23,387 nucleotides of DNA from positions 1 through 23,387 of the forward strand of contig JACCUU010000091.1 in NCBI GenBank assembly GCA_013811645.1. The letters are read 5' to 3'. Source of the stretch: Actinomycetota bacterium (GTDB taxonomy: Bacteria; Actinomycetota; Thermoleophilia; Gaiellales; Gaiellaceae). The notes beneath the pieces were generated by a model. It ran no database searches. It was not told the origin of the DNA and saw only the letters and a list, made by a program, of their open reading frames with translations. The position numbers and the translations under genes are program-made. This document shows, one piece after another, positions 627-18,528 of this stretch. Each line of letters opens with the position of its first letter. The stretch's first letter is position 1.

Positions 627-692
627 GCGGACGCGAAGCGGACGCCTTTAGGGATTTCGCGCGACCGAAATTCCGCTAGCGGAATTTCGGTC
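627..692 (-). repeat. Two-hairpin palindromic repeat, copy 1
   Basis: Read on the minus strand, this copy begins with a perfect 30-bp palindrome (663-692, centre GCTAGC). It continues with the linker GCGCGAAATCCCTAAAG and ends with a second weaker hairpin, GCGTCCGC-TTC-GCGTCCGC (627-645). The same order of parts and near-identical linker occur at 7289-7350 and 17712-17778. The copy starts 7 nt beyond the dnaE stop codon and lies between two convergent genes, so it may also act as a two-way transcription terminator, although there is no T run. Confidence 0.8.
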
Positions 693-699
693 AGCGCAA

Positions 700-3600
700 C
701 TAGACCAAGGCGGCTTCGCCGAGCAGCGCGCGCGCCTCGGCGTAGAAGTCTGCGTCCGGCTTCACGCGGTAGTCGGGGCCGAGAGCGAGCGTGCGTGCGC
801 CGAGTGACGTCTCGAGGGACACGTACACAGGAGCGTCGCCTGGGAAGTCCTTGACGAGGATCGCGAGCTCGCGTATGAGCCCGGCAGGCGCCTCGCGCGC
901 ATCGATTCGCAGTCGCACCTCGCGTCGTACCGGCGTCGACTCGAAGGCAGTGACCTCCAACGCGACGAGCTTCGTCTCCCCCGCCTGCTTGTGGTCGACC
1001 CGCCCCTTGACGATCAACATGCGATCCGTCTCGAGATGGTCGCGCGCCGCGGCGTAGGTGGAGTTGAAGACGACGACCTCGGCGCTTCCCGTGGGATCGT
1101 CGAGCGTCGCGAAGACCATCGGCTCGCCGCGCTTGGTCGTCACCTGCTTGAGGCCGGCGACGATCCCGCCGACGACGACGATCTCGCCGTCGCGGCGGCG
1201 CTCGACGTCGGCGAGCGTGCAGTCGGTCTTGCGCCTGAGCTCGCCCGAGACCTTCTGGAGCGGGTGCTCGGAGACGTAGAGCCCGAGTGTCTCCTTCTCC
1301 AGTCGAAGCAGCTCGCGCTCGTCGAACTCACCGGAGGGGATCGCAGGATGGTGCTTCTCTCCGGAAGCCTCCTCCGCTTCGCCGAAGCCGCCGTCGAAGA
1401 TGGAGGCCTGCCCGGCGAGACGGTCGGCCGCGTGCTTGTGACCAAGACCGAGTGCGCTGTCCAGCACTGCAAGCATCCCCAGCCGAGTCGCACCCGTGGA
1501 GTCGAGAGCGCCGCACTTCACGAGCGACTCGAGCGCACGCCGGTTCACGGTCTGCGGATCGGCGCGCTCGGTGAGCTCCCAGATCGTCGCGAACGGCCCA
1601 CCCTCCTTGCGCGCCCGCACGATGGCCTCAGCGGCGGACTCCCCGACGTTCTTCACCGCGTTCAGCCCGAAGTGGATCGTCCCGTCGACGATCGCGAAGT
1701 CGTGCTGGGAGGAGTTCACGTCCGGCGGGCGGACGTCGATGCCCATCTCGCGGCAGGCATTGACGTAGAAGGGCACGCGATCCTTCGTGTTCATGACCGA
1801 CGAGATGAGCGCTGCCATGTACTCGCGCGCATGGTTGGCCTTGAGCCACGCCGTGCGATACGCAATGAGCCCGTAGCACGCGGCGTGCGCCTTGTTGAAG
1901 GAGTAGTCCTGCGACGACTCCATGTCCTTCCAGAGCTGCTGAGCAACTCCCGCCGCGACGTCGTTCTGCGCGCATCCCTCCAGGAACTTGTCCTTGAGCG
2001 ACGCCATGAGCGAATGGATCTTCTTCCCGATTGCTTTCCGAAGTGTTTCCGCTTCCGCTGGTGAGAACCCGCCGAGCTGCTTCGCGATCTCCATGTACTG
2101 CTCCTGATAGATGCAGATCGCGTAGCTCCCGCCGGTGATCGCCTCGAGCCGTGGGTCGGCGAAGGCGACCTGCTCTTTCCCGTGCTTTCTGGCCGCGTAG
2201 GTCGGGATATAGCCCATGGGGCCCGGCCGGTAGAGCGCGACGAGCGCGATCAGGTCCTCGAACTCCGTCGGCTTGACGAGCCGCAGGGCTTCGCGCATGC
2301 CGGAGGACTCGAACTGGAAGACCCCCGTCGACTCGCCACGGGCGAGCATCGCGTAGGTCGGGCCGTCGTCGAGCGGGAGCGTCCCGATGTCGACCCCGCC
2401 GATGAGCTCCACGGCCTTGTCGATGACGTCGAGGTTCCGCAAGCCGAGGAAGTCCATCTTCAGGAGGCCGAGCTCGACGACGTCGTGCATCCCGAGCTGG
2501 GTCACGATCTCCTGGTCGGAGCCCTTCTGCTGCAGTGGCACGAGCTCGATGAGGGGCTGGGCGCCGATGACGACTCCGGCCGCATGGATCGAATCCGCTC
2601 GGGTGAGCCCTTCCAGCGGCCCCGCGAGGTCGAGGATCTCCTTCGCGACCGGGTCCGAGTCGACCGCCTGCCGCAGCTCCGATCCGGGGCGAAGAGATTC
2701 GGTGAGCGTCTGTCCTGGACCTTCCGGGACGAGCTTCGCGATTCGGTCGACGACCCCGTAGGGGATGTCGAGCACCCGGCCCGCGTCGCGGATCGCCGCG
2801 CGCGCAGCCATCGTCGAGAACGTGATGATCTGGGCGACCCGGTCGCGTCCGTACTTCTCGGCGACGTAGTTGATGACCTGATCGCGCCCGGCGACCGAGA
2901 AGTCGATGTCCATGTCGGGCAGGTCCTTGCGCGCCGGGTTCAGGAAGCGCTCGAAGAGCAGGCCGTAGCGCATCGGGTCGACATCGGTGATCTCGAGGCA
3001 GTACGCGGCGAGCGAGCCTGCCGAGGAACCGCGCCCGGGGCCGACGCTGACCCCGTTGTGCTTGGCGAAGTGGATGAAGTCCCAGACGATGAGGAAGTAG
3101 TCCGCGAAGCCCATCTCGCGCACCGTCTTCAGCTCGAAGCGAAGCCGCTCGTGGAGCTCCGGCGTGGCCTTGCCGAAGCGCTTGAGCAATCCCTTCTCGC
3201 ACAGCTCGACCAGGTAGTCGAACGCGTCACGCCCCTCCGGCACCGGGTAGCGCGGCAGCAGGATCTTGCCGAGCTCCATCTCGACCGAGCAGCGCTCGGC
3301 CACCTCGAGCGTCCGTGCGAGCGCATGCTCGTACCCGGCGAAGTCGCCTGCCATCTCCTCGGGCGTCTTGAAGAAGAACTCGTTCGTGTCGAAGCGCCAG
3401 TGCGCGGGGTTTTTCAGCGTGTCGCCGGACTGGATGCAGAGGAGCGCCTCGTGCGCGTAGGCGTCCCCCGCGTCGAGGTAGTGGACGTCTCCCGTCGCGA
3501 CGAGCGGGAGGCCCGTCTCCTCGGCAAGCGCGACCAGCTTGGGGTTGATCGCCTGCTGCTCCGCAAGACCGGCGTTCTGGAGCTCGACGTAGGTGGAGTC

Positions 3601-4104
3601 GCGTCCGAAGACCTGCTGGAGGCGGTCGAGGTCTTCGCGCGCATCCTTCGGCCGCTCCTCGGCGAGCGCCCGGGACACACGCCCCGAGAGACATCCAGAC
3701 AGCGCCACCAGCCCCTTGGCGTGGCTCTCGAGCAGCTCCCAGTCGACGCGCGGCTTGTAGTAGTACCCCTCGAGGTAGCCCAGCGAGCAGAGCTTGATGA
3801 GGTTCGCGTAGCCCTCGTTCGTCTCGGCGAGAAGCGTCAGGTGCGCATAGCCCTTGGTCTGAGCGCGCCGGTCGTCTGCGACGTACACCTCACAGCCGAC
3901 GATCGGCTTCACGCCCTCCCTGCGGGCCTCCCGGTAGAGCTCGACGGCGCCCGCGAGCGAGCCGTGGTCGGTGAGCGCGACCGCAGGCATCTCGAGCCGC
4001 TTCGCCTTCTCCACGAGCGCCGGGATCCGGCAGGCCCCGTCGAGAATCGAATACTCGGAGTGAACGTGGAGGTGGACGAAGGGCGGCGCGGCGGGGTGAC
4101 TCAC
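700..4104 (-). CDS. dnaE: DNA polymerase III alpha subunit
   Basis: Replicative DNA polymerase catalytic subunit, 1134 residues, the normal length for DnaE1. The N-terminal PHP domain has its metal-site motifs intact (HLHVHSEYS at 11-19, TDHGS at 45-49, SGC around 136-138, GDVHYL at 205-210). This suggests a working PHP proofreading site, as known for actinobacterial DnaE1. The palm carries GPGRGSSAGS (355-364), PDMDIDF (396-402) with the catalytic Asp pair D399 and D401, and KMDFLGL with the third Asp at 551. The fingers and HhH regions follow. QASIF at 899-903 fits the internal beta-clamp-binding motif. An OB fold covers about 976-1015. The start is GTG 4104; TAAGCT lies 9 nt upstream and there is no Shine-Dalgarno sequence, so the mRNA may be nearly leaderless. 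The reading frame is intact. Confidence 0.98.
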   Translation of the reverse strand: MSHPAAPPFVHLHVHSEYSILDGACRIPALVEKAKRLEMPAVALTDHGSLAGAVELYREARREGVKPIVGCEVYVADDRRAQTKGYAHLTLLAETNEGYANLIKLCSLGYLEGYYYKPRVDWELLESHAKGLVALSGCLSGRVSRALAEERPKDAREDLDRLQQVFGRDSTYVELQNAGLAEQQAINPKLVALAEETGLPLVATGDVHYLDAGDAYAHEALLCIQSGDTLKNPAHWRFDTNEFFFKTPEEMAGDFAGYEHALARTLEVAERCSVEMELGKILLPRYPVPEGRDAFDYLVELCEKGLLKRFGKATPELHERLRFELKTVREMGFADYFLIVWDFIHFAKHNGVSVGPGRGSSAGSLAAYCLEITDVDPMRYGLLFERFLNPARKDLPDMDIDFSVAGRDQVINYVAEKYGRDRVAQIITFSTMAARAAIRDAGRVLDIPYGVVDRIAKLVPEGPGQTLTESLRPGSELRQAVDSDPVAKEILDLAGPLEGLTRADSIHAAGVVIGAQPLIELVPLQQKGSDQEIVTQLGMHDVVELGLLKMDFLGLRNLDVIDKAVELIGGVDIGTLPLDDGPTYAMLARGESTGVFQFESSGMREALRLVKPTEFEDLIALVALYRPGPMGYIPTYAARKHGKEQVAFADPRLEAITGGSYAICIYQEQYMEIAKQLGGFSPAEAETLRKAIGKKIHSLMASLKDKFLEGCAQNDVAAGVAQQLWKDMESSQDYSFNKAHAACYGLIAYRTAWLKANHAREYMAALISSVMNTKDRVPFYVNACREMGIDVRPPDVNSSQHDFAIVDGTIHFGLNAVKNVGESAAEAIVRARKEGGPFATIWELTERADPQTVNRRALESLVKCGALDSTGATRLGMLAVLDSALGLGHKHAADRLAGQASIFDGGFGEAEEASGEKHHPAIPSGEFDERELLRLEKETLGLYVSEHPLQKVSGELRRKTDCTLADVERRRDGEIVVVGGIVAGLKQVTTKRGEPMVFATLDDPTGSAEVVVFNSTYAAARDHLETDRMLIVKGRVDHKQAGETKLVALEVTAFESTPVRREVRLRIDAREAPAGLIRELAILVKDFPGDAPVYVSLETSLGARTLALGPDYRVKPDADFYAEARALLGEAALV

Positions 4105-4161
4105 GGGAGGGCAAGCTTAGTACGGCACTCGGCTAGCCCTTGAAGACGCCCACGCTGCGCC

Positions 4162-4410
4162 TTACGCCGCGCCGACCTGCCAGAACGCGTCGGCCAGGCG
4201 ACGCCACTCGTCACGAAGATCGGCCCGGCCGGTCACCTGCTGGAGCTCCCAGTACGCCCGAATGAGCGCGCCGAGATCCGGCTCTGAGCCCTCCACTCGT
4301 CCCGCCTCGAGCACGCGCAGGTACCAGGAGGCGGGTTCGATTCCGAGCTCGGCCGAAAGCGTGAGCGCGCGGTCGCGCAGGGCTTCGGTGGGCGTTGCGA
4401 GGCGATCCAT
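4162..4410 (-). CDS. Small hypothetical protein, 82 residues
   Basis: I do not recognise this protein. It has 82 residues, starts at ATG 4410 and stops just upstream of the dnaE 5' end on the same strand. The sequence looks predominantly helical and soluble, with Trp and Tyr residues spaced in amphipathic stretches (ASWYLRVLEAG, AYWELQQVTG, EWRRLADAFWQVG) and no membrane segment or signal peptide. It could be transcribed with dnaE, 57 bp downstream, or be an independent gene divergent from the phosphatase at 4501. Codon use and the coherent amphipathic pattern favour a real gene. The upstream ribosome site is weak, so the start is uncertain. Confidence 0.55.
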   Translation of the reverse strand: MDRLATPTEALRDRALTLSAELGIEPASWYLRVLEAGRVEGSEPDLGALIRAYWELQQVTGRADLRDEWRRLADAFWQVGAA

Positions 4411-4500
4411 GCCCGAGCTATCGGCACCCGCGACGAGCCGATTGAGGCGGTCCCCTCGGACGGGGGAACAAGCGTCCGGGCAAACTGAGCGTCGCCGACA

Positions 4501-4962
4501 ATGCGCCCTCCGACCGTCATCGTCCCTGGCCGCCTCATCGCCGGCCGCCACCCGTGTGCCTGGGGCCCGCAGGATGCGCCGGAGGAGGTCGCGCGGCTGC
4601 TGGAAGCGCGGGTCACCCTCTTCGTCGATCTCACGCAGGAGGGTGAGCTCGAGCCGTACGCCTCGCTCGTTCCGCCCGCCCGCCATGTCCGGATGCCGAT
4701 TCGGGACTTCTCCGTGCCCGCTCCCGACGATCTCGTCGCGACGCTCGACGCGATCGACGCGGAATTGGGCGCGGGAGGGCTCGTGTACGTGCACTGCTGG
4801 GCGGGCTGCGGCCGGACCGGCGTCGTCGTCGGGTGCTGGCTCGTCCGGCGGGGCTTTGATCCCAAGGACGCGCTCGCGAGGATCGCGGAGACCCGCGGTC
4901 TCGGCTGCCCGCAGACGCTGGAGCAGCGGCTGCTCGTCTTCGGCTGGGAGGCGGGTCGGTAG
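4501..4962 (+). CDS. Dual-specificity protein phosphatase family protein
   Basis: This 153-residue cysteine phosphatase contains the P-loop HCWAGCGRT (residues 98-106), matching the HCX5R(S/T) signature, with nucleophile C99 and phosphate-binding R105. D69 in PIRDFSVP is placed as the general acid, as in dual-specificity phosphatases. The protein is a single cytoplasmic domain with no signal peptide. It probably removes phosphate from a phosphotyrosine, phosphoserine or phosphothreonine protein, or from a small phosphorylated substrate; the target cannot be read from sequence. It starts at ATG 4501, 90 bp from the divergent 82-residue gene, and two tandem hairpins follow its stop. Catalytic residues look complete. 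Confidence 0.88.
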   Translation: MRPPTVIVPGRLIAGRHPCAWGPQDAPEEVARLLEARVTLFVDLTQEGELEPYASLVPPARHVRMPIRDFSVPAPDDLVATLDAIDAELGAGGLVYVHCWAGCGRTGVVVGCWLVRRGFDPKDALARIAETRGLGCPQTLEQRLLVFGWEAGR

Positions 4963-5024
4963 CACCGGCAGGTCGGTAGTACCCCGCATGCGGAACCTCG
5001 CGATTCCCCACCTCCCCGCCGCTG

Positions 5025-5055
5025 GTCCGCTTCGCGGACAGTCGCTACCGCGACT
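5025..5055. terminator. Two back-to-back hairpins after the phosphatase gene
   Basis: GTCCGC-TTC-GCGGAC (5025-5039) is followed immediately by AGTCGC-TACC-GCGACT (5040-5055), both perfect stems, and then CCCTGAAACGGG. They lie about 60 bp past the phosphatase stop and could end its transcript, though no T run follows. The stretch ACCGCG...CCCTGAA resembles the linker of the palindromic repeat family, so it may be a degenerate relative. Confidence 0.4.
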
Positions 5056-5228
5056 CCCTGAAACGGGTGAGCGTGCTGAGAGCAACGGGCTCCGATAGGC
5101 GTGTTGAGCATGTGCGCCGGCTTCGTGGTTTTCCGCGCTCGCGGCGTCGAGGGGACGTGTTGAGCCCGGACGCCCGGTACGCGATCGCTCCCGCGGACGT
5201 CGACTCGGGAACCCGTGCCGGAGAGCCG

Positions 5229-7133
5229 ATGCCGTCGCCAGCTGAGATCGACACCGACGGGCTCGAGGAGCGTATCGGGGCGCTCGCCAACCTGGTCGGC
5301 GAGATCGCCGATCGCGTGCGCGCCGCAGAGCTCGCGACCGGCGACGAGAAGACGGCGAAAGAGCTTCGGCGCGCGATGGAAGCGGTCGCGAAGCACGACC
5401 CTAGGCTCGAAAGCCGACTGACGAACCGGATCGACGTCCTCGCCGACCGCCTCGGCACGCTCGCCTCCGCCGTGTCGACGACGTCGTCGGAGCTCGCACG
5501 GAGGGACGGCGAGCTGGCGGCCCTTCGCCGCGAGCTCGAGCGGGGGAGCGCGCAGATCCAGGCATTCGGACAGGAGGTCGCGAGAGGAGGTTCCGCAGCC
5601 GAGATCGACAAGCTCCGAAAGACGGTTGCAAGCCTCTCGACCGAGCATTCGCCTCGGAAGGCAGACGAGCAGGTCGTTCGGCTCGGCGGGAAGGTCGACT
5701 ACCTGACCGAACGCGTCGACACGCTCGCCAAGACCGTCGCGGCGACCGCAGCCGGGCTAGCCGGGCGAGACGGAGACCTCGCCACACTCCGCCAGAAGCT
5801 CGACGAGCGCGCGAGGCGCCTGGAGCAGGGGATCCTGGAACTGGGGCAGCGTCCTGCCGAGGCGGGGCTCGGCCGACGCCTCGAGGATCTCGAAGCCGAG
5901 GTCGAGCAGTCGATGGCAGGCATGGGCGAGAAGCAGGCTGCCGTCGAGCACCGGATCGCAGCACACGAGGTAGCACTGACCGGATCGGCTCGAGAGGCTG
6001 CGCGGATCGGCGAGCTCGGGCTCGGGCTGGCGGAGCTCACCGGTCGGCAGGAGACGGCAGAACGCGATCGCGAGAACGATCTGGTGAGAGTCACTGCGTT
6101 GGAGCTGGATCGTCGGACGTCGACGAACGCCGACGTGGAGAGCGTTCGCGAGGCGATCGCCTCGCTGTTGGACGACGTGGAACGTGACCGGGCGACCGTC
6201 GAAACGCGCCTCGACACGATGGCAAGGGATCGCAGCGAGCAGGCGGCAGAGATCGGCCATGCGTCCAGAGCTGTCGCGAATCAGCTGGAAGGGCTCGTCG
6301 AGCGGATCGAGAGGGTCGAGCACCTGCAGGTTGCGGGCGCGACCGAGACCACGCGCTTGTCGGCCGAATGGGCGGCGAGGATCGAAGCCGTCACCTCGCT
6401 CGAGGCTCAGCTGCAATCGCTGGCGGAGAGCGTGGCGGAAGCCGCCCGGGGCGCGGAGAGCGAGGACGGCGCGGGACTTACGGAGCTCGACGCGCGTCTC
6501 CAGGCCGTCGAGCGGGCGGGCGTAGATGTCGCAGCCGAAATCACGCGCGTGTCGGCTTCCTGGTCAACAGAGCTCGAGAGGATCGCCGCCAAGATCGACG
6601 ATTCCGCCGCGACCGCGCTGGACGCAACGTCACGCGACGCGCAGGCCGAGCGGATTCTGACGGAGCTCGGCACGCGACTCGATGCCATCGTGCACGAGCG
6701 GCAGACGGTCGCGGCCCAGATTGCGATGGCCTCGGAGAACGAGGTCGCCGAGCTTCGAACCCTCATCGCCGGCTTTCGTACGCGCTTGGCGCCCGTCGAC
6801 CTGGAAAGTCCCGGTCCACCGTACGTCGGAGGCCGCCTCGACGAGCTGGCCCGCAGGCTCGACTCGATCGGCGACGTCGGCCCGGATCAGGAACTCGAGT
6901 CCGGCGCGGGTGAGGGTCGCCTACGGCTCGAGCTGCGCGCTCTCGAGCTTCGCGCGGAGCCCACCGAAAAGGCGGCTCAACAGAATCGGGACGCGGTTCT
7001 CGCGCAGCTCGATCTGCTCGCGGGCCAGATCGAGTCACGTTTCCAGAGGCTCGAGGCAGAACCGACCGACCCCTCGAGCTCCGAGGAAGCCGGCCAAGCC
7101 GAGGTCGTGCCACTTCGCGGTGCAGAGGTGTGA
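5229..7133 (+). CDS. Long coiled-coil protein with internal repeats
   Basis: I do not recognise this protein as a named family. From ATG 5229 it has 634 residues, almost all in heptad-like helices rich in Ala, Glu, Arg and Leu, with no membrane segment or signal peptide. It contains an internal duplication: residues 67-104 and 155-192 align over 38 positions at about 47 percent identity (both contain RDGxLAxLR). Shorter related pairs occur further on (TTRLSAEW and ITRVSASW). Such proteins usually serve as scaffolds or rod-like spacers. ATG 5229 has GGAGAG close upstream; GTG 5157, TTG 5160 and an ATG at 5067 are in-frame alternatives that would add sequence of different, Arg-rich character. 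The C-terminal 20 residues are acidic and probably disordered. Confidence 0.75.
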   Translation: MPSPAEIDTDGLEERIGALANLVGEIADRVRAAELATGDEKTAKELRRAMEAVAKHDPRLESRLTNRIDVLADRLGTLASAVSTTSSELARRDGELAALRRELERGSAQIQAFGQEVARGGSAAEIDKLRKTVASLSTEHSPRKADEQVVRLGGKVDYLTERVDTLAKTVAATAAGLAGRDGDLATLRQKLDERARRLEQGILELGQRPAEAGLGRRLEDLEAEVEQSMAGMGEKQAAVEHRIAAHEVALTGSAREAARIGELGLGLAELTGRQETAERDRENDLVRVTALELDRRTSTNADVESVREAIASLLDDVERDRATVETRLDTMARDRSEQAAEIGHASRAVANQLEGLVERIERVEHLQVAGATETTRLSAEWAARIEAVTSLEAQLQSLAESVAEAARGAESEDGAGLTELDARLQAVERAGVDVAAEITRVSASWSTELERIAAKIDDSAATALDATSRDAQAERILTELGTRLDAIVHERQTVAAQIAMASENEVAELRTLIAGFRTRLAPVDLESPGPPYVGGRLDELARRLDSIGDVGPDQELESGAGEGRLRLELRALELRAEPTEKAAQQNRDAVLAQLDLLAGQIESRFQRLEAEPTDPSSSEEAGQAEVVPLRGAEV

Positions 7134-7159
7134 AGACCGCCTGATGAGGTCATAACGAG

Positions 7160-7333
7160 ATGATGCGGCTCCTCGACCTCATGGTATTTCTCGGTGTGCG
7201 CAGCTCCTGGGCGCGCAGCCGGCTCGCCTACCGGCTCCTCCTGAGCATCGTCGTCGCCGACCGCGCGCGACGCTGATTTGCCCGGCACAGGATCGGAAAC
7301 CGCTCTCGCGGATTCCGATCGCGCAAGATCCCT
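7160..7333 (+). CDS. Possible small membrane-associated peptide ending in a repeat
   Basis: This is a 57-codon ORF, 26 bp behind the coiled-coil gene, with GAGG about 10 nt before ATG 7160. Residues 4-33 form a hydrophobic and basic amphipathic stretch (LLDLMVFLGV, YRLLLSIVVA). The last 14 codons and the TAA stop come from palindromic repeat copy 2, because the conserved CCCTAA of the repeat supplies the stop. It may be only a chance frame in a GC-rich intergenic region. The evidence is weak. Confidence 0.25.
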
Positions 7334-7350
7334 AAGACCGCTTCGCGGCC
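7289..7350 (+). repeat. Two-hairpin palindromic repeat, copy 2
   Basis: Stem 1 is GATCGGAAACCGC (7289-7301), loop TCTC, GCGGATTCCGATC (7306-7318), with one mismatch in 13 pairs. The linker is GCGCAAGATCCCTAAG, and the second hairpin is CCGC-TTC-GCGG inside a GC-rich tail ending in GCGGCCGC. It has the same architecture as 627-692 and 17712-17778. It lies between the convergent coiled-coil and GNAT genes and could terminate both transcripts. Confidence 0.8.
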
Positions 7351-7353
7351 GCG

Positions 7354-7857
7354 TCATGCCTCGATGACGAATGCCATCAGGATCGCGTCGACGACGTCGT
7401 CGCCACGGGCGTAGTGCTGCTTTCGGTAGCCCTCGCGCTCGAAGCCGAAGGACTCGTACAGGTGTACCGCGGGCTCGTTCCACGGGAAGACGTGCAGCTC
7501 GAGCTTCCGCACCCCCACCGTCCGCGCCCAGGCGACCGCTTCGGCGAGCAGCTTCGTCCCGATCCCCTGCCGACGATGGCTTTCGGCGACCATCAGTCCG
7601 AGATCCGCGACGTGGTGGCTTGCGGGGTGCGGATCGCGGGAGAGCGAGAGCCGCCCAACGACACGGTCGCCGTCGGCTGCGACGATGACGGTCGCGTCCG
7701 GGTGGCGGAGAACGGTCTTCAGGTATCTCCGCTCGCTCGAGACCGACCGCCAGCTCTCGGTGGCGAGGATCCACCGTCCCTCTTCGCCTCCGACCGCCTG
7801 CGCGAGCTCGACCAGCGCGGCCGCGTCGCTCGGCTCGGCGCGTCGGACGCGAATCAC
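7354..7857 (-). CDS. GNAT family N-acetyltransferase
   Basis: This 167-residue protein is a single GNAT fold that would transfer an acetyl group from acetyl-CoA to an amine. The acetyl-CoA pyrophosphate-binding loop is RRQGIGT, after the beta-4 strand HHVADLGLMV. The C-terminal motif NEPAVHLYESFGFEREGYRKQHY is the usual end of RimI-like and small-molecule acetyltransferases. The substrate is unknown. The start codon GTG 7857 overlaps the stop of the upstream gamma-glutamyltransferase-like gene in a GTGA arrangement, so the two are translationally coupled and probably act in one operon. Confidence 0.92.
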   Translation of the reverse strand: MIRVRRAEPSDAAALVELAQAVGGEEGRWILATESWRSVSSERRYLKTVLRHPDATVIVAADGDRVVGRLSLSRDPHPASHHVADLGLMVAESHRRQGIGTKLLAEAVAWARTVGVRKLELHVFPWNEPAVHLYESFGFEREGYRKQHYARGDDVVDAILMAFVIEA

Positions 7858-9191: not shown

Positions 9192-9197
9192 CTTCAC

Positions 9198-9203: not shown

Positions 9204-9220
9204 TTTGGCGCTCGTCCTGA

Positions 9221-9236: not shown

Positions 9237-9243
9237 GCGGCAC

Positions 9244-10653
9244 CTAGGAGCTCAGGAACGCGGGGAGCTCGTCGTCGGAGCCCCGCGAGGAGGCGCCCTC
9301 GAAGGTCGGACGCGTCAGGCGGCGACGGCTCCCGCCCAGGCCGGTGGCGACGACGGTCACCCAAACCTGTCCGGTGAGGCGCGGGTCGACGTTTGCTCCG
9401 AAGATGATGTTCGTCTCGTCGGTCGCGGTAGCGCGCACGACCTCGGCCGCCTCGTTGACCTCGACGAGCGAGAGATCGTCACCGCCGGCGATCGAAAGCA
9501 GGATCCCGCGGGCGCTCACGATCTCGCCGTCGATCAGCGGCGAGCCGAGCGCACGTTCGGCGGCCTCTTGCGCACGGTTCGGCCCGGTCGCGTAGCCGAT
9601 GCCCATTAGCGCGGAGCCGGCGTCCTGCATCACGGTGCGCACGTCGGCGAAGTCGAGGTTGATCAGGCCCGGCGTCGTGATCAGGTCACAGATGCCCTGG
9701 ACGCCCTGGCGGAGGACGTCGTCGGCGATCCTGAACGCGTCGATCATCGACGTGGAGCGGTCGAGTACGTCGAGGAGCCGGTCGTTCGGGATCACGATGA
9801 CGGTGTCGCACGCGGCTCGCAGCTCCTCGACGCCGCGATCCGCCGCCGTTCGGCGGCGCGTGCCTTCGAAGCGGAACGGCGTGGTGACGATCCCGACCGT
9901 GAGGGCGCCGATCTCGCGTGCGATGCGCGCGACCACCGGGGCGGCTCCTGTTCCGGTGCCGCCGCCCTCGCCTGCGGTGACGAAGACCATGTCCGAGCCG
10001 CGCAGCGTCGCACGCAGCTGGTCGGCCGCATCTTCGGCCGCGGCGCGACCCACCGTCGGGTCAGCGCCCGAGCCGAGGCCGTGGGTCACGCCTTCTCCGA
10101 TGTGGATCTTGGTGGGGGCATCCGAGACCGCGAGTGCCTGCATGTCGGTGTTCACGGCGATGAAGTCGACCTGGGCAATCCCGGCATCGATCATGCGATG
10201 GAGCGCGTTCAGGCCGGCGCCGCCAACGCCGACGACCCGGATCGCGGCGAGATACGCCGTTCCCTTGGGCGGGGGGACGCGGTGCAGTCGCGGCGCGGGC
10301 TCGAGGATCGTCTGGAAATAGCGCGCTGCCGCGCGGGAAGCCGTAGCCTCGGTCGCGGCGGTGGCGGGCTCCTGTAGAGCCTTCGGCGGCGTGCGTGGCT
10401 TCGTGGCCGCCGGCGGGGCGCTCTGCCGCGGCGCCGTCTGTTCCTCTTCCTCCTCGACTTCCCCGAAGTCGTGGACGTGCTCGACCGTCGCTTCGAGCGC
10501 GGCCCGTGCGCGAGGGCTCAGCTCATCCGTGTCCGCGGGCCGCTCGGGCTGCTCACCTTCGGCGGGCGCATCCTTGGCGCGCTGGGCGGCCTCGGTCTTG
10601 CGGAAGAGCTCGGCCAGCGGGCCCTCACGCATGCTCGCGCGCTTGCGCGCCAT
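9244..10653 (-). CDS. ftsZ: Cell division GTPase FtsZ with long N-terminal extension
   Basis: This tubulin-like GTPase would polymerise into the division ring. The core runs from about residue 137 ([14 protein letters not shown]) to 445. It has NTD (168-170), the GTP-binding loop [11 protein letters not shown] (226-236, the Glu form used by actinobacterial FtsZ), and the catalytic T7 loop NLDFADV (332-338). The C-terminus [11 protein letters not shown] resembles the conserved peptide that binds FtsA, SepF or ZipA, but lacks the usual terminal basic residues. The odd part is the first 130 residues, rich in Ala, Pro and Glu with an acidic run (EVEEEEEQ); ordinary FtsZ has only a short N-terminal tail. 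ATG 10653 is preceded by AAGGAGG with a 6-nt spacer, so the extension is real by start choice. The gene overlaps parA by 29 nt. Confidence 0.93.
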
Positions 10654-11548
10654 CGAGCACCTCCTTCGCGAGATCGCGGTACGCCTGAGCCGCTGGGCCA
10701 GTGGGGTCGTAGCGCAGCACGGAGCTCCCCTTCACCGGCGCCTCCGCGTAGCGCACGGTCTTGCGGATCCGCGTCTCGAACAGGAGATCGCCGAAGTTTT
10801 CCTGCAGGATCTCGATGGCCTCGCGCGCGTGCAATGTCCGCCCGTCGTACATCGTGGGGACGATGCCCTGCACGCGAACCGCGGGATTCAAGTTCTCACG
10901 CACCATGGCGAGCGTGTTCTCGAGTTGCACGAGGCCGCGCAGCGAGAGGTACTCGCACTGCACCGGCACGATCACTCCGTCGGCCGCGACGAACGCGTTG
11001 ATCGTCAGCAGGCCGAGCGACGGAGGCGTGTCGAGAAGCACGTAGTCGTACTTGTCGCGAACCTCGACGAGTGCCTTCTCGAGCGCCCGCTCGCGCCCGA
11101 TCAGGGCAGAGAGCGCGAGCTCCGCGCCGGCCAGGTCGATGGAGGCAACGGCAATGTCGACCTCGACGGTGTGGATGACGTCGGAGATAGGGACCCGGTG
11201 CACGAGGACGTCGAACATCGATCGCTCGATCACGTCGGGGTTCATTCCCTGGCTCATGGTCAGGTTGCCCTGCGGGTCGAGATCGATGATGAGGACGCGC
11301 TTGCCGGCTTCCTTGAGCGCGACGCCGAGGTTCAGCGTCGTCGTCGTCTTGGCGACGCCGCCCTTCTGGTTCGCGAAGGCGATCACCCTTGCCAGCGGGT
11401 GCTCCTCGGGATCGTCGGTGAGCTCGGAGGACGGAACCGCGTGGAGCCGCGGCACCGCCGTCGACTCGACTGCGGTATCCGTCTCGCCGGCAGGCTCGAC
11501 AGGCTCGGGCGGCGGCTGGGACCGCGGCAGGATTCGTGAGAGTCCCAT
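10625..11548 (-). CDS. parA: ParA/Soj-family ATPase
   Basis: This 307-residue P-loop ATPase belongs to the ParA/MinD superfamily, which positions chromosomes, plasmids or protein assemblies. The deviant Walker A motif KGGVAKTTT (62-70) has the signature Lys at 62. [10 protein letters not shown] (residues 86-95) and [10 protein letters not shown] (Walker B) are also intact. About 50 N-terminal residues, rich in Pro and Glu, precede the ATPase domain and are probably disordered. No parB or parS-like gene lies next to it; instead it overlaps ftsZ by 29 nt, so it may position the division machinery rather than, or as well as, DNA. ATG 11548 is preceded by GGTGAGG with a 5-nt spacer. Confidence 0.92.
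10660..10666 (-). promoter_or_regulatory. Strong ribosome binding site of ftsZ
   Basis: AAGGAGG lies 6 nt before ATG 10653, inside the 3' end of parA. It fixes the ftsZ start upstream of the long N-terminal extension and indicates that ftsZ is translated from the parA message. Confidence 0.85.
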
Positions 11549-11620
11549 GACCGCCTCACCTTCCCGTCTCCGGCTGAAACTCCTTCAATGCCGTTCACGG
11601 TAGCCACACGGGCTCCGACT

Positions 11621-12568: not shown

Positions 12569-12795
12569 ACGGCGATCATGTCATGCGAAAGGGCCTTCGG
12601 AGTCGCCCCGGCCAACGCTGACCGCAGACCGTCGACGGCATCCCCTCCAGCATCACCTCCCTCCGTGCTCGCCCAGGCTTCCGCCTCTCCGAGCAGTGCT
12701 CGCAGCTCGGGCAGAAGCGCCGCACGCCCGGCGCCGGACCGGTCGAGCGCCTCGATTCGCTCCAGCCGCTCCAGCACCGCTCGTGCCTCGTCCAT
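12565..12795 (-). CDS. Small hypothetical protein coupled to the bicupin
   Basis: This 76-residue protein begins at ATG 12795; GTG 12804 in the same frame would add three residues. It is Ala- and Leu-rich and mostly helical, with leucine-heptad spacing (AVLERLERIEALD, LLPELRALLGEAEAW) and no membrane segment. I do not recognise a family. Its stop overlaps the bicupin start by 4 nt, which argues that it is a real, translated gene and that the two proteins are made together. It may form a small helical partner or dimer; that is inference. Confidence 0.6.
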   Translation of the reverse strand: MDEARAVLERLERIEALDRSGAGRAALLPELRALLGEAEAWASTEGGDAGGDAVDGLRSALAGATPKALSHDMIAV

Positions 12796-12863
12796 GGAGC
12801 CCACGCTAGCCCGCTTCGCGTCACGGGTGGGAAACGACTCTGTGCCGACTTCGTGCCGAAGTG

Positions 12864-12881
12864 CGCCCTCGAACGAGGGCG
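12864..12881 (-). terminator. Hairpin downstream of the 407-residue gene
   Basis: CGCCCTCG directly opposes CGAGGGCG with two unpaired A residues between them (8-bp arms), 3 nt beyond the stop of the gene at 12885. It probably ends or weakens transcription before the small ORF and bicupin pair. There is no T run. Confidence 0.4.
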
Positions 12882-12884
12882 GCT

Positions 12885-14108
12885 TCAGACGGCCTCGGCC
12901 CAGGCCGTCTGTCGCCGTGAAAGTCCCAGGAGCTCGCGGTCGAGCTCGTGCACGAGCTCGCTTCGATCGGGTGCGCGCAGCGTCGCCACCAGCGCCCGTC
13001 TGGCCGCATCGACGCAGGCCGTGCTTCCGCCGTCCCCTCCGGCAAGCGCGACGAGATGACCATGCAGCTCCTCGCGGGCAGTGCTGTCGGCCTCCAGAAG
13101 CACCGCCGCACGCAGCGGCCAGGTTTCACCGAGGAGCGCGCCGAGCGCGGCGCGAAGCTGCTCGGCCCGGAACGGCTCGTTCTGGAACAGGGAAAGCTCC
13201 CAGCGGTCGAGCGCCTCGGCCAGCTCCGGGTCACCGTCGGCTTTGCCGAGCGCGGCAAGCACGTCCATGGCGATCGGAGCCCGGAATGCGTCCAGGCGGG
13301 ACGGCTCCCCCGGTGGCTGTGTCGCGGCGATCGGGAGCACCGGGCGGACGCCGAACGGCCGGCCGTCGAGGGTTTCGAAAAGAACCGGCCCCGCGGCCAG
13401 CGCCGCTGCCGTCGTCAACCGGATCGCGCTCACCGCATCAGCGATCTCGGCGGGCGAGTCGGGGGGATCGGCGCCTGAATCGAGATCGACGAAGAGCTCG
13501 AGCACGCAGCAGCGGTCGGGCTCGCGACCGAACCCCGGTGGCAGCAACCCCCGCGACTCGGGCCAGTGGGTCGAAAGCTCTCCCGACGCGAAATGGCGGA
13601 TCGAGAGGCCGGGCGCGAGGTCGACCGGCCCTGCAACCGACAGTCCGATGAGCGGCACGAGCGCGCGGAACTGCCGCCGCTCCCCGAAGAGCGTCGACTC
13701 GAGGATCCCATACGCGTGCTCGAAGGCCTCGTCGTCCCAGTCGAACCCGCCGCACGACTCCGCTGTCGAAGTGAGCAACCCGAGGAGCACCGTACGAAAG
13801 AGCGCGTCGTCCTCGCTCGCCTTAGTGCCGGCATGGGCGCGGGCGAAGATCGCGGCTGCGGGCTCACGGTCGAGCTCGTCGAGGGCAAGGCGCGCGTCGT
13901 CACGCGAGCGGAGAAGTGATTCGCGGTCTTCGATGAACGATCGAACGAGCGGACGTAGCTCGTACAAGGCAGGGCCGTTTCGCTGAACATGCTCTTCGAA
14001 TGCAAACGGCAGCTCGGCGCCGTCTTCGAGCTCGCGGCCGAGGACGACGAACGCCCCGAGGACGAAGCCGCGCAACAGCGGATAGAGGTGGGGCGCGCGC
14101 ACGGGCAC
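12885..14108 (-). CDS. Hypothetical protein, 407 residues
   Basis: I do not recognise a family. The protein is soluble, with no signal peptide or clear membrane segment. Residues 1-110 look helical; 110-190 contain DWDDEAFEHAYGILESTLFGE and a loop-rich segment LIGLSVAGPVDLAPGLSIR of the kind seen in beta-rich regions. Residues 280-400 are again helical, with conserved-looking FRAEQLRAALGALLGETWPLRAAVLLE. It starts at GTG 14108 or GTG 14102; GGAAG lies 8 nt before the latter. It follows lhr by 46 bp on the same strand and may be co-transcribed with it, which hints at a link to nucleic acid repair or stress, but this is context only. Confidence 0.7.
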   Translation of the reverse strand: MPVRAPHLYPLLRGFVLGAFVVLGRELEDGAELPFAFEEHVQRNGPALYELRPLVRSFIEDRESLLRSRDDARLALDELDREPAAAIFARAHAGTKASEDDALFRTVLLGLLTSTAESCGGFDWDDEAFEHAYGILESTLFGERRQFRALVPLIGLSVAGPVDLAPGLSIRHFASGELSTHWPESRGLLPPGFGREPDRCCVLELFVDLDSGADPPDSPAEIADAVSAIRLTTAAALAAGPVLFETLDGRPFGVRPVLPIAATQPPGEPSRLDAFRAPIAMDVLAALGKADGDPELAEALDRWELSLFQNEPFRAEQLRAALGALLGETWPLRAAVLLEADSTAREELHGHLVALAGGDGGSTACVDAARRALVATLRAPDRSELVHELDRELLGLSRRQTAWAEAV

Positions 14109-14154
14109 GTCTTCCGGGTACGCGGCCGGGCCCGGCTCTCCTCTCTGGACAGAG

Positions 14155-17100
14155 CTACGGTCGCAGAACCGCGCGCCGAGGACCTGCGAGGAAGCCGGAC
14201 TCGACCAGCAAGCTCATCGCCTCCGTCTCGATGACCGGCACGCCGTCGAAGCGCTCGACCGCAAGGCGCTTCGCTCCTCCCGATCTGACGTGGGCGACGA
14301 GCGAGGCGAGCGCCGGACGCAACCACTCGGGATCCGGCTCCCGCAGCGGAACGAGCGAACGGCCACCCCGCTCCACGAACAGCACCGCCTCACCGTCGAC
14401 CAGGACTACCCAGGCACCGGCTACCCGCGCGGCGCGCGCACCGGCTCGGCGCGGCCAGGGTACAGCGGCTCCATATGGCTGAGCGGGATCAGCCGCCGCC
14501 AGGACAAGCGCATCCCGCTCCCTGACCTCGCGCGCTTCCGTCCGCAGCTCGCGCAAACGCTCGACGGCTCCGGGCAACGCGAACTGAGCGCCCCCAAGAC
14601 CTTCGACGAAGTACCCGCGCCGGCAGACTCCGAGCGTCTCGAGCGCCCGCAGCTCGCCGTACACGGCGCCGTACCCGCCCTTGACGCCCTCGCCCCGCAC
14701 GCCGTCACGCGTCACGATCCCCTGCCGTTCGAGCAGGAGCTCCGCCAGGGCTCGGCGGTCGGGCTGCTCCGGGAAGAGCGACGTCGCGAGCGACCACCTG
14801 CCCTGCGTGGGTGACGGCGCACTTGTGCGCGAGCGCAGGAAGCGACGCCTGTTCCGTTCTGGGCGAGGCGCGTCATAGCGGCGTGACGCGCGGAGCGGCG
14901 CCCACGAGTCGTTCGTCACCTCACCGGTCCAGACGAGATCCCAGAGCCCCGTCAGCGCGTCGGACGGCTCGAGCTCGGTCCTGGCCAGGAGATCCGCCCA
15001 GAAAAGAGCACCTGCGCCGAGCGCGGCACGGATCGAGCTGTGAACCGAGCCCTCCGGCGGCACTTCTCCAGCCGGCGATCCGAGTAGCGCAGCGTCCTCA
15101 CGAAAGTACACGGCGACGCGATCCAGCCCGGCACCGACCCAGATCACATCGCCTGACGCGCAGAGCGCGTCGAGATCGGCGGGCCGGTACGCAGGAACCC
15201 GCCGAGGCAACACGTCACTCTCCCAGAGCGAGACCGGCAGCGCGAGCCCTTGCAGCGGAACGAGAGCCTCACGCAGGGTCTGGCGACGCCCGATCCCGTG
15301 CCACGCGGGCAGGAAGCGTCCCAGCGCAGCCTGGTCGGCAGGCTCGACCTCGCGACGCAGGACGGCGAGCGTCGCCCGGCGAATGCGCCGCAGAACGTCC
15401 GGGTCACACCACTCGCGCTCGGTGCCGCCCGGCCGAAGCTCTCCGCGCACGAGCTTCTCGTCATGCTCGAGCCCCTCGAGCTCGCCCTCCGCCTTGTCGA
15501 GCTCGAGCCCGAATCGAGCCGCCGCCTCGGCGGTCGTGAAAGGCCCGTGGGTGCGGGCGTAGCGACGCAAGACAACGGACAGCGCGTCGGGCACCTGCTC
15601 GAGGAAGACGTTCGGGACGCCACCGGGCGGCACCGCACCGAACGCATCCCGGACGAGCCCCGCGTCCTCGACGGCGGCCAGCGGTTCCACCTCGCCGAGC
15701 CGAACCCGGATCGCCCGCCGCTCACGCAAGAGCGTCTCGGCGAAGCCACGGTCGTACTCCCCGTCGAGCAACGGCCCGGCCCGCCGCAGCAAGTCATGGA
15801 GCTCGTCGGCGTTTCGTGGCATGAGCCGTAGCGAGGCCTCGACCTGCTCGATGGCGCCGAGATCGAGAAGCTCGCGAAGCTCCTCGGCTCCCATCAGCTC
15901 GCGGAGAAGCCCGCGGTCGAGCGAGAGCGCCTGCGCCCGCCGCTCCTCGGGCGGCGTGTCGTCCTCGTACATATAAGTCGCCACGTAGTCGAAGAGGAGC
16001 GAGGACGCGAACGGGGACGCGGAAGCCGTCTCGACCTCGACGAGATCGAGCTCACGGGTCTGGATCCCTTTGAGAATCCCGCGCAGAGCGGGCAGGTCGA
16101 AGACGTCCTGCAGGCACTCGCGATATGTCTCGAGCACGATCGGGAACTGCGGGTAGCGTCGCGCGACCTGGAGCAGGCTCTGCGCCTTCAGCCGCTGCTG
16201 CCAGAGCGGCGTACGCTGGCCGGGACGGCGACGCGGGATGAGGAGCGCGCGCGAGGCGTTCTCCCGGAAGCGCGAACCGAAGAGCGCAGACTGCCCGAGC
16301 TCCGCGATCACGAGCTCCTCGACGTCCCCGGGGTCGAGCAGGAGATCGGCGAGCGGAGGTGGCACGTCGGCATCCGGGAAGTGCAGCGCGATGCCGTCGT
16401 CCGACCAGATCGACTGCGCGTCGACGCCGAGCGAGTCCCTGAGCCGCGCCGCGAGCGCCATCGCCCAGGGTGCGTGCACGCGACCGCCGAACGGGGTCAG
16501 CACGCACACGCGCCAGTCGCCGATCTCGTCACGGAAGCGCTCGACGACGATCGAGCGATCCGAGGGGACGACGCCCGTGGCGGCCTCCTGCTCGCGCAGA
16601 TATGTGACGAGATTCCGCGCCGCCCGCGTGTCCAGGTGGTACTCGCGAGTCAGCGCGGCCTGCGCCTCGTCGTCGGAGAGCGAGACCAGCTCGCGCGATG
16701 CGCGGCCGATCCTCTCACCGAGCTCCGCCGGCCGCCCCACCCCTTCGCCCTTCCAGAACGGCGCCACTCCCGGAACTCCCGGTGCCGGGGAGACGAGAAC
16801 GCGATCCCGCGTGATGTCCTCGATCCGCCACGTCGAGGCCCCGAGGACGAATGTCTGGCCCTCGCGCGCCTCGTACACCATCTCCTCGTCGAGCTCGCCG
16901 ACCCGCCCGCCGTCGCCGACGAGGTAGACGCCGAAGAGCCCTCGGTCGGGGATCGTGCCGGCATTGGTCACCGCGAGCCGCCGGGCTCCGGTGCGCCCAC
17001 GCACGATCCCTGCGGTTCGATCCCAGACGATCCGTGGCCGGAGCTCGGCGAACTCGTCGGACGGATACCGGCCCGCGAGCATGTCGAGCACGTTCTCGAG

Positions 17101-18528
17101 CTGGGCTCGAGAGAGGTCCGAGAACGGGTACGCGCGACGGACGAGCGCGTGCAGCTCGTCCACCGAGATCTCCTCGTCGGCGCAGATGGCGACGATCTGC
17201 TGGGAGAGAACGTCGAGCGTGTTTCGGGGAATGCGCGTCTCCTCGATCGCGCCCTCGCGCATCGCGCGCGCCACAACCGCGCACTCGAGCAGGTCGGCCC
17301 GGAACTTGGGGAAGATGCGGCCCCGCGACACCGAGTGCAGGTCGTGCCCCGCTCGCCCCACGCGTTGCAGCCCACGGGCGACCGACTTCGGGCTCTCGAC
17401 CTGGATGACGAGGTCGACGGCGCCCATGTCGATGCCGAGCTCGAGCGAGGACGTGGCAACGAGACACGGGATCCGGCCGGCCTTCAGGAGCTCCTCCACG
17501 ACGATTCGCTGCTCACGCGCGAGCGACCCGTGGTGGGCGCGCGCGATCTCCTCCCCGGCGAGCTCGTTCAGCCGCAGCGCGAGCCGCTCCGCGAGCCGGC
17601 GGTTGTTGACGAAGACGATCGTCGAGCGGTGCTGCCTGACGAGGTCGAGAATGGCGGGGTAAATGGACGGCCAGATCGAGCGGCTCGACTGCTCGGCTGT
17701 ACCTTGCGCAAGATCGGAATCCGCTAGCGCGGACTCCGACCGCGCGAAAACCCCTGAAGGCGGCCGCTCTGCGGCCGCTGCCGTAGTACGCGAGTCCGCG
17801 AGCGGCGGCACGGAGAGATCCGCAGTCGACCCGAGCTCGCGCATGTCCTCGAGCGGAATCACGACCTCGAGATCGAGCTCCTTCCGCGTGCCCGCGTCCA
17901 CGAGCTCGATCTCCCGCTCCGAGCCTGCGACGAAGCGGCCGATTTCGACAAGCGGGCGCTGCGTCGCCGAGAGGCCGATGCGTTGGAAGGGGCGCTCGAC
18001 CAGGCCTTCGAGCCGCTCCAGCGACAGCGCGAGGTGCGCTCCGCGCTTGGTTCCGGCAACCGCGTGCACTTCGTCCAGGATCACCGTCTCGATGCCGCGC
18101 AAGGTCTCGCGCGCCTGGGAGGTGAGGAGTAAGAAGAGCGACTCGGGGGTAGTGATGAGGATGTCCGGCGGCGTCTTCTGCATCCGTCGCCGCTCGTCCG
18201 CGGGTGTGTCGCCAGTGCGCACGCCGACGGAGAGCTCCGAAGCAAGACCTGCAAGCGGGCTCCGGAGGTTGCGCTCGATGTCGTAGTTGAGCGCCTTGAG
18301 CGGGGAGACGTACAAGAGCCGGAGGCCCTCGCCGGGCGACGCGTTCAGCCGGTCGATCCCGATCAGGAACGCCGCGAGCGTCTTCCCCGAGCCGGTCGGC
18401 GCCTGGATGAGAACGTTTCCGCCCTCCGCGATCGCAGGCCACCCGAGCGCCTGGGCCGGAGTCGGCCCGGCGAACGCCCGCTCGAACCACTTCCTCGTTC
18501 CGGGCGAGAAAGCATCGAGCGCGGCCAT
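14155..18528 (-). CDS. lhr: Lhr-family ATP-dependent DNA helicase
   Basis: This large superfamily 2 helicase of 1457 residues is close to the length of mycobacterial Lhr, a DNA-damage-induced 3'-to-5' helicase. Lobe 1 has Walker A APTGSGKT (43-50), the DEVH box (152-155) and SAT (187-189). Lobe 2 has HHGS, SSLELGIDMG and QRVGRAGH (388-395). The winged-helix, beta-barrel and long C-terminal domains of full-length Lhr follow. Residues 251-273, between the lobes, are encoded by a palindromic repeat element in frame. TACCCT lies 6 nt before ATG 18528, suggesting a leaderless mRNA; GGGGA is too close to serve as a Shine-Dalgarno. The gene diverges from a DNA glycosylase across a 20-bp inverted repeat. 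Confidence 0.95.
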   Translation of the reverse strand: MAALDAFSPGTRKWFERAFAGPTPAQALGWPAIAEGGNVLIQAPTGSGKTLAAFLIGIDRLNASPGEGLRLLYVSPLKALNYDIERNLRSPLAGLASELSVGVRTGDTPADERRRMQKTPPDILITTPESLFLLLTSQARETLRGIETVILDEVHAVAGTKRGAHLALSLERLEGLVERPFQRIGLSATQRPLVEIGRFVAGSEREIELVDAGTRKELDLEVVIPLEDMRELGSTADLSVPPLADSRTTAAAAERPPSGVFARSESALADSDLAQGTAEQSSRSIWPSIYPAILDLVRQHRSTIVFVNNRRLAERLALRLNELAGEEIARAHHGSLAREQRIVVEELLKAGRIPCLVATSSLELGIDMGAVDLVIQVESPKSVARGLQRVGRAGHDLHSVSRGRIFPKFRADLLECAVVARAMREGAIEETRIPRNTLDVLSQQIVAICADEEISVDELHALVRRAYPFSDLSRAQLENVLDMLAGRYPSDEFAELRPRIVWDRTAGIVRGRTGARRLAVTNAGTIPDRGLFGVYLVGDGGRVGELDEEMVYEAREGQTFVLGASTWRIEDITRDRVLVSPAPGVPGVAPFWKGEGVGRPAELGERIGRASRELVSLSDDEAQAALTREYHLDTRAARNLVTYLREQEAATGVVPSDRSIVVERFRDEIGDWRVCVLTPFGGRVHAPWAMALAARLRDSLGVDAQSIWSDDGIALHFPDADVPPPLADLLLDPGDVEELVIAELGQSALFGSRFRENASRALLIPRRRPGQRTPLWQQRLKAQSLLQVARRYPQFPIVLETYRECLQDVFDLPALRGILKGIQTRELDLVEVETASASPFASSLLFDYVATYMYEDDTPPEERRAQALSLDRGLLRELMGAEELRELLDLGAIEQVEASLRLMPRNADELHDLLRRAGPLLDGEYDRGFAETLLRERRAIRVRLGEVEPLAAVEDAGLVRDAFGAVPPGGVPNVFLEQVPDALSVVLRRYARTHGPFTTAEAAARFGLELDKAEGELEGLEHDEKLVRGELRPGGTEREWCDPDVLRRIRRATLAVLRREVEPADQAALGRFLPAWHGIGRRQTLREALVPLQGLALPVSLWESDVLPRRVPAYRPADLDALCASGDVIWVGAGLDRVAVYFREDAALLGSPAGEVPPEGSVHSSIRAALGAGALFWADLLARTELEPSDALTGLWDLVWTGEVTNDSWAPLRASRRYDAPRPERNRRRFLRSRTSAPSPTQGRWSLATSLFPEQPDRRALAELLLERQGIVTRDGVRGEGVKGGYGAVYGELRALETLGVCRRGYFVEGLGGAQFALPGAVERLRELRTEAREVRERDALVLAAADPAQPYGAAVPWPRRAGARAARVAGAWVVLVDGEAVLFVERGGRSLVPLREPDPEWLRPALASLVAHVRSGGAKRLAVERFDGVPVIETEAMSLLVESGFLAGPRRAVLRP
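17712..17778 (+). repeat. Two-hairpin palindromic repeat, copy 3, inside lhr
   Basis: Stem 1 is TCGGAATCCGC-TAGC-GCGGACTCCGA (17714-17739, one mismatch). The linker is CGCGCGAAAACCCCTGAAG. Stem 2 is a perfect GCGGCCGC-TCT-GCGGCCGC (17760-17778). It is oriented opposite to lhr and is read through in frame by it. Alignment with copies 1 and 2 is clear across both stems and the linker. Confidence 0.85.

What the first reader, a model, noticed from the sequence alone, without database searches (positions are those of the whole stretch)
627..17778. A family of two-hairpin palindromic repeats with three clear copies
Copies at 627-692 (-), 7289-7350 (+) and 17712-17778 (+) share one design. Stem 1 is about GATCGGAATCCGC with its inverse, followed by the linker GCGCGAAAWCCCTRAAG, then a second GC hairpin about GCGGCCGC-TTC-GCGGCCGC. 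They are 62-67 bp long. The linker is not palindromic yet is conserved, so this is a dispersed element and not just chance terminators. Three copies in 23 kb predicts hundreds in the genome. It resembles REP/BIME or Rickettsia palindromic elements in form, but I know of no described family with this sequence.
Basis: seen in the sequence. Interest (0 to 1): 0.8.

Follow-up and report, generated by a model that had tools for sequence, protein, structure and literature searches.

The report
Mobile hairpin repeats at gene ends
A short DNA repeat that folds into two hairpins is scattered through genomes of one bacterial family, mostly right beside the ends of genes, and has also landed in frame inside conserved genes, where it adds about 25 amino acids to the protein.

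Summary
Three copies of a ~75-bp two-hairpin repeat lie in the window. A covariance model finds 37 distinct places in the 58%-complete own genome, copies in 11 of 11 held genomes of the genus, in 25 of 129 of the order, all one family, and in 3 of 396 sampled phylum genomes, again that family. Covariation is strong.

It behaves as a non-autonomous mobile palindrome: orthologous sites are empty in a sister genome, two gene ends carry it in opposite orientations in different species, tandem arrays occur. Copies abut gene ends (51 of 70 start -2 to 10 bp from the upstream stop). The peptide sits there in 14 of 119 listed Lhr homologs, scattered over the tree, and in an oxidoreductase.

In hairpin 1, A-C mismatches outnumber G-T 65 to 23, so the reverse strand folds better. 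No mover was found; Y1 transposases are neither linked nor co-distributed. Closest kinds: REPs and Rickettsia palindromic elements.

The parts
626..698 (-). Copy A, core of the repeat; between the dnaE stop (700-702) and a called convergent gene ending at 597
   Evidence: R1 match 78.6 bits; gene calls; orthologous site empty in the closest relative G009
659..697 (-). Copy A, hairpin 1
   Evidence: fold
646..658 (-). Copy A, linker
   Evidence: alignment A2
627..645 (-). Copy A, hairpin 2
   Evidence: fold
7284..7353 (+). Copy B, core; its 3' end touches the stop of the GNAT gene on the other strand
   Evidence: R1 match 74.0 bits; at this gene end G009 is empty and G010 has the element in opposite orientation
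7285..7324 (+). Copy B, hairpin 1
7325..7337 (+). Copy B, linker
7338..7348 (+). Copy B, shortened hairpin 2
17705..17779 (+). Copy C, core; inside lhr, on the strand opposite to it; read by lhr as AAAAERPPSGVFARSESALADSDLAQ
   Evidence: R1 84.2 bits; translation; 9 of 10 genus genomes with an lhr match lack it
17706..17745 (+). Copy C, hairpin 1
   Evidence: fold
17746..17759 (+). Copy C, linker
17760..17778 (+). Copy C, hairpin 2
   Evidence: fold
14155..18528 (-). lhr, large DEAD/DEAH helicase (1457 aa), host of copy C between its DEAD and Helicase_C domains
   Evidence: Pfam; many full-length homologs without the insert have about 1430 aa
700..4104 (-). dnaE, DNA polymerase III alpha; its stop lies 1 bp from copy A
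   Evidence: Pfam
7354..7857 (-). GNAT acetyltransferase; its stop abuts copy B
   Evidence: Pfam

Best explanation
A non-autonomous mobile palindromic repeat: a core mostly of 73-77 bp plus a weakly conserved tail of about 25 nt, found so far in one actinobacterial family (probably Gaiellaceae, from names of near homologs). SHOWN: it is dispersed; its hairpins are held by covariation; orthologous sites are filled, empty or filled in opposite orientation among species of one genus; it forms tandem arrays; it abuts gene ends with an excess of TAG and CTAG nearby; and it lies in frame inside lhr (own genome) and a Gfo/Idh/MocA oxidoreductase (G008), with the same peptide in the same places of further homologs known only as proteins. 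Harmful insertions are purged, which leaves gene 3' ends and the one reading frame whose peptide is tolerated in flexible linkers. Effects on the host, such as on mRNA 3' ends or translation near the stop, would be side effects.
For: Copies: 37 places in the own MAG; 11 of 11 genus genomes; 25 of 129 genomes and 6 of 42 genera of the order, all family f1; 3 of 396 sampled from the phylum, all f1. Covariation. Site differences: dnaE end, GNAT end and lhr filled in G000 and empty in G009; opposite orientation at the GNAT end (G010 v G000) and at one orthologous convergent pair (L020 v L068). Arrays: six units in G009, five in G006. Gene ends: of 151 copies ++27, --48, +-43, -+12, inside 5, one neighbour missing 16. 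Stops within 45 bp of a copy are TAG in 83 of 152, other genes 94 of 270. CTAG starts 27 times in positions -14 to -4 of 120 copies, about 0.8 expected. Strand: A-C 65 v G-T 23 in 119 of 151 copies, same sign in the four two-neighbour contexts; the reverse strand of each window copy folds better. Coding: 14 of 119 readable Lhr homologs; 12 inserted of 100 rows need 11 changes and one clade is rejected; 3 of 121 oxidoreductases, query included.
Against: No enzyme was found; Y1 and integron integrase tests were negative. No target-site duplication is shown: CTAG on the two sides is not associated (4 of 120 have both). At 8 gene ends copies are shared between genomes in the same orientation, against 2 in opposite orientation, so many copies look old. 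The scattered lhr inserts could partly be spread by homologous recombination. The A-C/G-T bias may be inherited from a few source copies, so the counts are not independent; in two small classes with a missing neighbour it is absent (0 v 2 and 1 v 1). Filled and empty sites were compared at three loci only. Gene calls came from a rough script.
Confidence: 0.72

Rival explanations
1. A REP/BIME family mobilised by a RAYT (Y1 HUH transposase) of the same genomes.
For: Same genomic habit as REPs in PMC3733652 (passages seen): convergent and unidirectional spaces, often under 20 bp from gene ends, in-gene copies in DNA repair and helicase genes, TAG of the tag serving as stop. Y1 genes occur in 6 of 11 genus genomes. 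A hairpin with a conserved bulge and one favoured strand would suit a single-strand transposase (recalled).
Against: No copy in the stretches held around 10 Y1 loci; no co-distribution (17 of 25 v 74 of 104; 18 of 25 with the G009 match that only one search found); three copy-rich genomes (G002, G003, G008) gave no Y1 hit, though they are 53-69% complete; no fixed GTAG: GTAG in the last 14 bp of 23 of 120 copies, CTAG of 27, at varying distance and often as a gene's stop.
Confidence: 0.15
2. A host 3'-end RNA element (terminator, mRNA stabiliser or ribosome-stalling hairpin) kept by selection.
For: Most copies sit close to stops, and convergent spaces (43) exceed divergent ones (12, 5 of them one array). 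REPs within 15 nt of a stop are reported to affect translation (PMC12306157, passages). 8 gene ends share copies in the same orientation.
Against: No T-run: none of the three window copies is flagged. Both orientations relative to co-directional neighbours occur (27 v 48). The strand bias does not follow gene direction. Arrays, in-frame copies inside genes and empty sites in a sister species.
Confidence: 0.1
3. The lhr and oxidoreductase inserts come from a few old insertions spread by homologous recombination, not from repeated insertion (compatible with the best explanation otherwise).
For: Same linker and frame each time; P0002-P0005 share the left junction.
Against: Junctions differ (for example P0007, P0008, P0009, P0012, P0013, P0014, P0030). 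Proteins without the insert keep the usual linker residues. 11 changes on the tree, one clade rejected, though recombination would also break a clade.
Confidence: 0.3

Closest known systems
GTAG- and CGTC-tagged REP sequences (PMC3733652, passages seen)
   Same: Small palindromes in many copies, mostly between convergent or unidirectional genes close to gene 3' ends, some inside ORFs including helicase and repair genes; grouped copies; CGTC REPs likewise lack a known transposase.
   Different: Here the unit is two unlike hairpins joined by a conserved linker, ~75-100 bp rather than 20-40; no fixed GTAG tag; no Y1 gene linked. The word Actinobacteria does not occur in that paper's main text.
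Rickettsia palindromic elements, RPE (PMC10969869 and PMC2229807, passages seen)
   Same: Palindromic repeat of about 100-150 bp with an open frame, inserted in frame into unrelated conserved genes.
   Different: Different phylum; sequences were not compared. Here in-gene copies are rare (2 clear of 151) and recur in the same linker.
Mycobacterial interspersed repetitive units, MIRU (one passage of PMC12548453)
   Same: Short actinobacterial repeat thought to be mobile and to insert at gene junctions.
   Different: MIRUs are said to insert at start codons and couple translation; here copies abut stops. No sequence comparison was made.
Integron attC sites (recalled)
   Same: Palindrome after a stop codon, bulged bases, one strand favoured.
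   Different: No integron integrase over the family cut-off in 11 genus genomes; the copies seen in the window lie beside ordinary chromosomal genes.

Membership tests
REP | short, similar palindromes in multiple copies, mostly extragenic | tested here: met
   the unit is longer than usual
REP | GTAG or CGTC tetranucleotide at one end of the stem | tested here: not met
   GTAG in the last 14 bp of 23 of 120, CTAG of 27 of 120, spacing 0-9 bp; CGTC was not counted
REP | association with a RAYT | tested here: not met
   incomplete genomes and short contigs limit the test
RPE-like coding palindrome | in-frame insertion in unrelated protein genes with a conserved peptide | tested here: met
   lhr and Gfo/Idh/MocA; DNA seen for one case of each
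RPE-like coding palindrome | a large share of copies inside genes | tested here: not met
   2 clear of 151; 3 more near N-termini are doubtful
RPE (Rickettsia) | sequence kinship to Rickettsia elements | not tested
   model R1 was searched only within the phylum
MITE | terminal inverted repeats | tested here: inconclusive
   the two ends differ by eye; no program was run for it
MITE | target-site duplication | tested here: inconclusive
   CTAG enriched on both sides but not jointly (4 of 120)
intrinsic terminator | GC stem followed by a T-run | tested here: not met
   the three window copies
integron attC | integron integrase in the genome | tested here: not met
   0 of 11 over cut-off; weaker matches in 10 of 11, as in all 14 controls
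Rfam families | match to a curated RNA family | tested here: not met
   window at gathering thresholds; six loci at E<=0.5, one match at E 0.43 far under its gathering score
MIRU | insertion at start codons with a coupled ORF | not tested
   no MIRU sequence was compared; distances to starts were seen but coupling not analysed

The most novel reading that the evidence does not exclude
A new class of mobile palindrome moved as a strand-specific hairpin (ssDNA or RNA) by an enzyme that is neither Y1 nor integron type, targeted to TAG/CTAG at gene ends, which has inserted many separate times into the same linker of lhr in one orientation and frame, so that a repeat repeatedly becomes a protein segment of a conserved helicase.
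Probability: 0.25. Interest if true: 0.78.

Novelty: new variant of a known kind. Interest (0 to 1): 0.58.

Why it matters
In-frame palindromic repeats are best known from Rickettsia (PMC10969869, PMC2229807, passages). Here an actinobacterial family shows the same trick with a different repeat, and species of one genus still have empty sites, so that the origin of in-frame inserts, their effect on the protein and the enzyme behind them become testable. Searches of the open-access library listed no description of this family (listings only, and subscription papers and preprints are not covered).

Tried and rejected
Intrinsic terminator: no T-run. Known RNA family: none. RAYT/Y1: see rivals. 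Integron attC. TSD: no association of CTAG on the two sides. Coding-frame protection across intergenic copies: in 60 cores of 75 nt the peptide frame is open in 88%, but three other frames are as well (87-90%), so no special protection is seen. Three 'inside gene' calls (L016, L095, L049) lie at N-termini and were not counted as in-gene. P0089 has an unrelated insert and was dropped before the 100-row tree, along with proteins under 1250 aa (P0014 and P0030 among the inserted ones); with these kept, 15 labelled rows of 119 needed 13 changes, at least 10 forced by well supported branches. 32 of 151 copies without the canonical hairpin-1 layout were left out of the mismatch count. One search used wrong coordinates for one copy and was redone. 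One search scanned with an ORF that is probably spurious and found no relative. One search was aimed at the wrong residues of P0122 and says nothing about the insert. brought 80 lhr loci of named genomes (best 83% identity); they were not analysed. One search had a script fault and was redone. The Lhr model is of moderate quality (mean pLDDT 68.6); only its low confidence over residues 215-285 was used, and no fold search was run.

Full report
OBSERVATION. The three copies are real. From linker hits in the own genome (9 places; the reversed control pattern hit once) and copy C, eight full copies were aligned (A2) and made into a covariance model, R1. In the own genome, a MAG of 1.41 Mb in 313 contigs and 58% complete, R1 gives 63 matches at E<=0.1; merging opposite-strand self-hits of the palindrome by hand leaves 37 distinct places at E<=1e-3. 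In the genus 11 of 11 held genomes match, with 1 to 95 raw hits each (both strands counted, 119 candidates scored per genome); the 30 genomes of 21 other genera in that sample have none. A wider sample finds 25 of 129 genomes of the order, in 6 of 42 genera, all of the same family (37 candidates scored per genome, so weak cases may be lost). Of 396 genomes spread over the phylum 3 match, all of that family (12 candidates per genome). Some near Lhr homologs are named Gaiellaceae or Thermoleophilia bacteria, hence the probable family.

ANATOMY. On 113 aligned copies 20 of 25 pairs have a change on both sides against 7.9 (sd 1.6) in shuffles; slid structures fall to 22-48% paired (the alignment was fitted to the model, which leans towards it). 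Tandem arrays occur: six units about 79 bp apart in G009 (L082), five units 105 bp apart in G006 (L168), three about 100 bp apart in L040 and two 105 bp apart in L087. Four own-genome loci carry hairpin 1 joined to another 3' module, and two lack hairpin 1 (L003, L008).

WHERE THE COPIES SIT. Genes were called with a small codon-usage script, which is rough, and loci were fetched by rank, so strong copies are over-represented. Of 151 copies of at least 54 bits: 27 lie between two genes running the same way as the element, 48 between two running the other way, 43 between convergent genes, 12 between divergent genes (5 of these in one array), 5 inside a called gene, 16 with a neighbour missing. 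In the first and third classes 51 of 70 start -2 to 10 bp from the upstream stop. In the second, 35 of 48 end 6-31 bp from the stop of the downstream gene, about the length of the tail. Stops within 45 bp of a copy are TAG in 83 of 152 genes against 94 of 270 other genes. In 120 non-tandem copies CTAG starts 27 times at -14 to -4 (about 0.8 expected) and 18 times at +14 to +34 (about 1.6 expected), including 8 upstream cases in the 44 copies whose upstream neighbour needs no stop there. Joint occurrence is not raised (4 of 120), so no target-site duplication is shown.

MOBILITY. Nine genus genomes match the dnaE end; R1 finds the element there only in G000 (in G002 the contig ends at the gene), and G009, whose DnaE piece is 93% identical, has a short spacer without it. 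At the GNAT end G000 has it in one orientation, G010 in the other, G009 none. In lhr 1 of 10 genus genomes has it. Among gene ends next to copies in the fetched loci, 8 are shared between genomes in the same orientation (L010/L092/L091, L011/L074, L012/L155, L023/L075, L027/L175, L044/L157, L046/L166, L069/L180) and 2 in opposite orientation (L020/L068 and the GNAT gene). A shared gene end does not prove one common insertion. So some copies look old, and others differ between species.

INSIDE GENES. Copy C lies in lhr between DEAD (23-190) and Helicase_C (294-394). lhr reads its reverse strand as AAAAERPPSGVFARSESALADSDLAQ. Relative to G009 the gain is net 25 residues. In the Lhr model residues 215-285 have pLDDT under 50, so the insert falls in a flexible linker. 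Of 120 listed Lhr homologs 119 had a readable linker and 14 carry the peptide. The list was drawn with an inserted query, so this is no population frequency, and for these homologs only proteins were seen. With the linker left out of a quick tree, 12 inserted among 100 long proteins need 11 changes, and one clade is rejected; junctions vary. A second gene, a Gfo/Idh/MocA oxidoreductase in G008, holds a copy (L177). Its homolog P0122 and a more distant one, P0202, have inserts at the same site; 118 of 121 sequences, query included, lack it. All in-gene cases seen use the same frame, although four of six frames are about equally open in the repeat. Selection for a mild peptide, or orientation-coupled insertion, could explain this; recombination between relatives may account for part of the scatter in lhr.

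STRAND. In hairpin 1 of the 119 of 151 copies with canonical layout, A-C mismatches number 65 and G-T 23. The sign is the same in the four classes with both neighbours (12:5, 19:8, 21:4, 6:1) but not in two small classes with a missing neighbour (0:2, 1:1). A-C on this strand is G-T on the other; over 151 copies the reverse strand is more stable by 2.5 kcal/mol on average as RNA, and the three window copies agree. This points to the element's own folding, as ssDNA or RNA, rather than to a role tied to the direction of the host gene. Shared ancestry of copies weakens the count.

ENZYME. Y1 transposases (PF01797) occur in 6 of 11 genus genomes, 5 over the cut-off; none of the 10 loci has an R1 match in the stretch held. 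Across the order 17 of 25 repeat-bearing and 74 of 104 other genomes have Y1 (hand tally; G009 matched but not). No integron integrase passes its cut-off in 11 genomes. The mover is unknown.

COMPARISON. REP elements share position, scale and occasional in-gene copies, including in helicases (PMC3733652, passages), but the fixed tag and the RAYT link fail here. RPEs share in-frame coding inserts (PMC10969869, PMC2229807, passages). It works like both, and I file it as a new family of this general kind. Literature searches.

Noticed in passing
L032, L034, L036, L037 (own genome): Hairpin 1 is joined to another 3' module with CGGGGTGTGAAGTCG: a second subfamily, so the modules may shuffle (held loci only).
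   Followed up: partly
L003 and L008 (own genome): Copies with linker and hairpin 2 but no hairpin 1, as if hairpin 1 were lost or never gained between GCGC repeats.
   Followed up: no
L217:1999-2163 (G001): At the GNAT gene end of another species lies a different ~165-bp sequence with inverted ends AGGCTTGATGTGGG, sharing the tail motif CACATCAAGCCT.
   Followed up: no
P0089 (Lhr homolog): The same Lhr linker holds an unrelated insert, so the linker may be a general insertion hot spot.
   Followed up: no
window 9244-11548 (-): An FtsZ-family gene with a long N-terminal extension (tubulin domain from residue 138; start not checked) next to a ParA/MinD-type ATPase gene.
   Followed up: no
L168:1782-2277 (G006): Five tandem units 105 bp apart; in the overlapping locus L049 an open frame runs from there into a ruvC gene.
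   Followed up: partly
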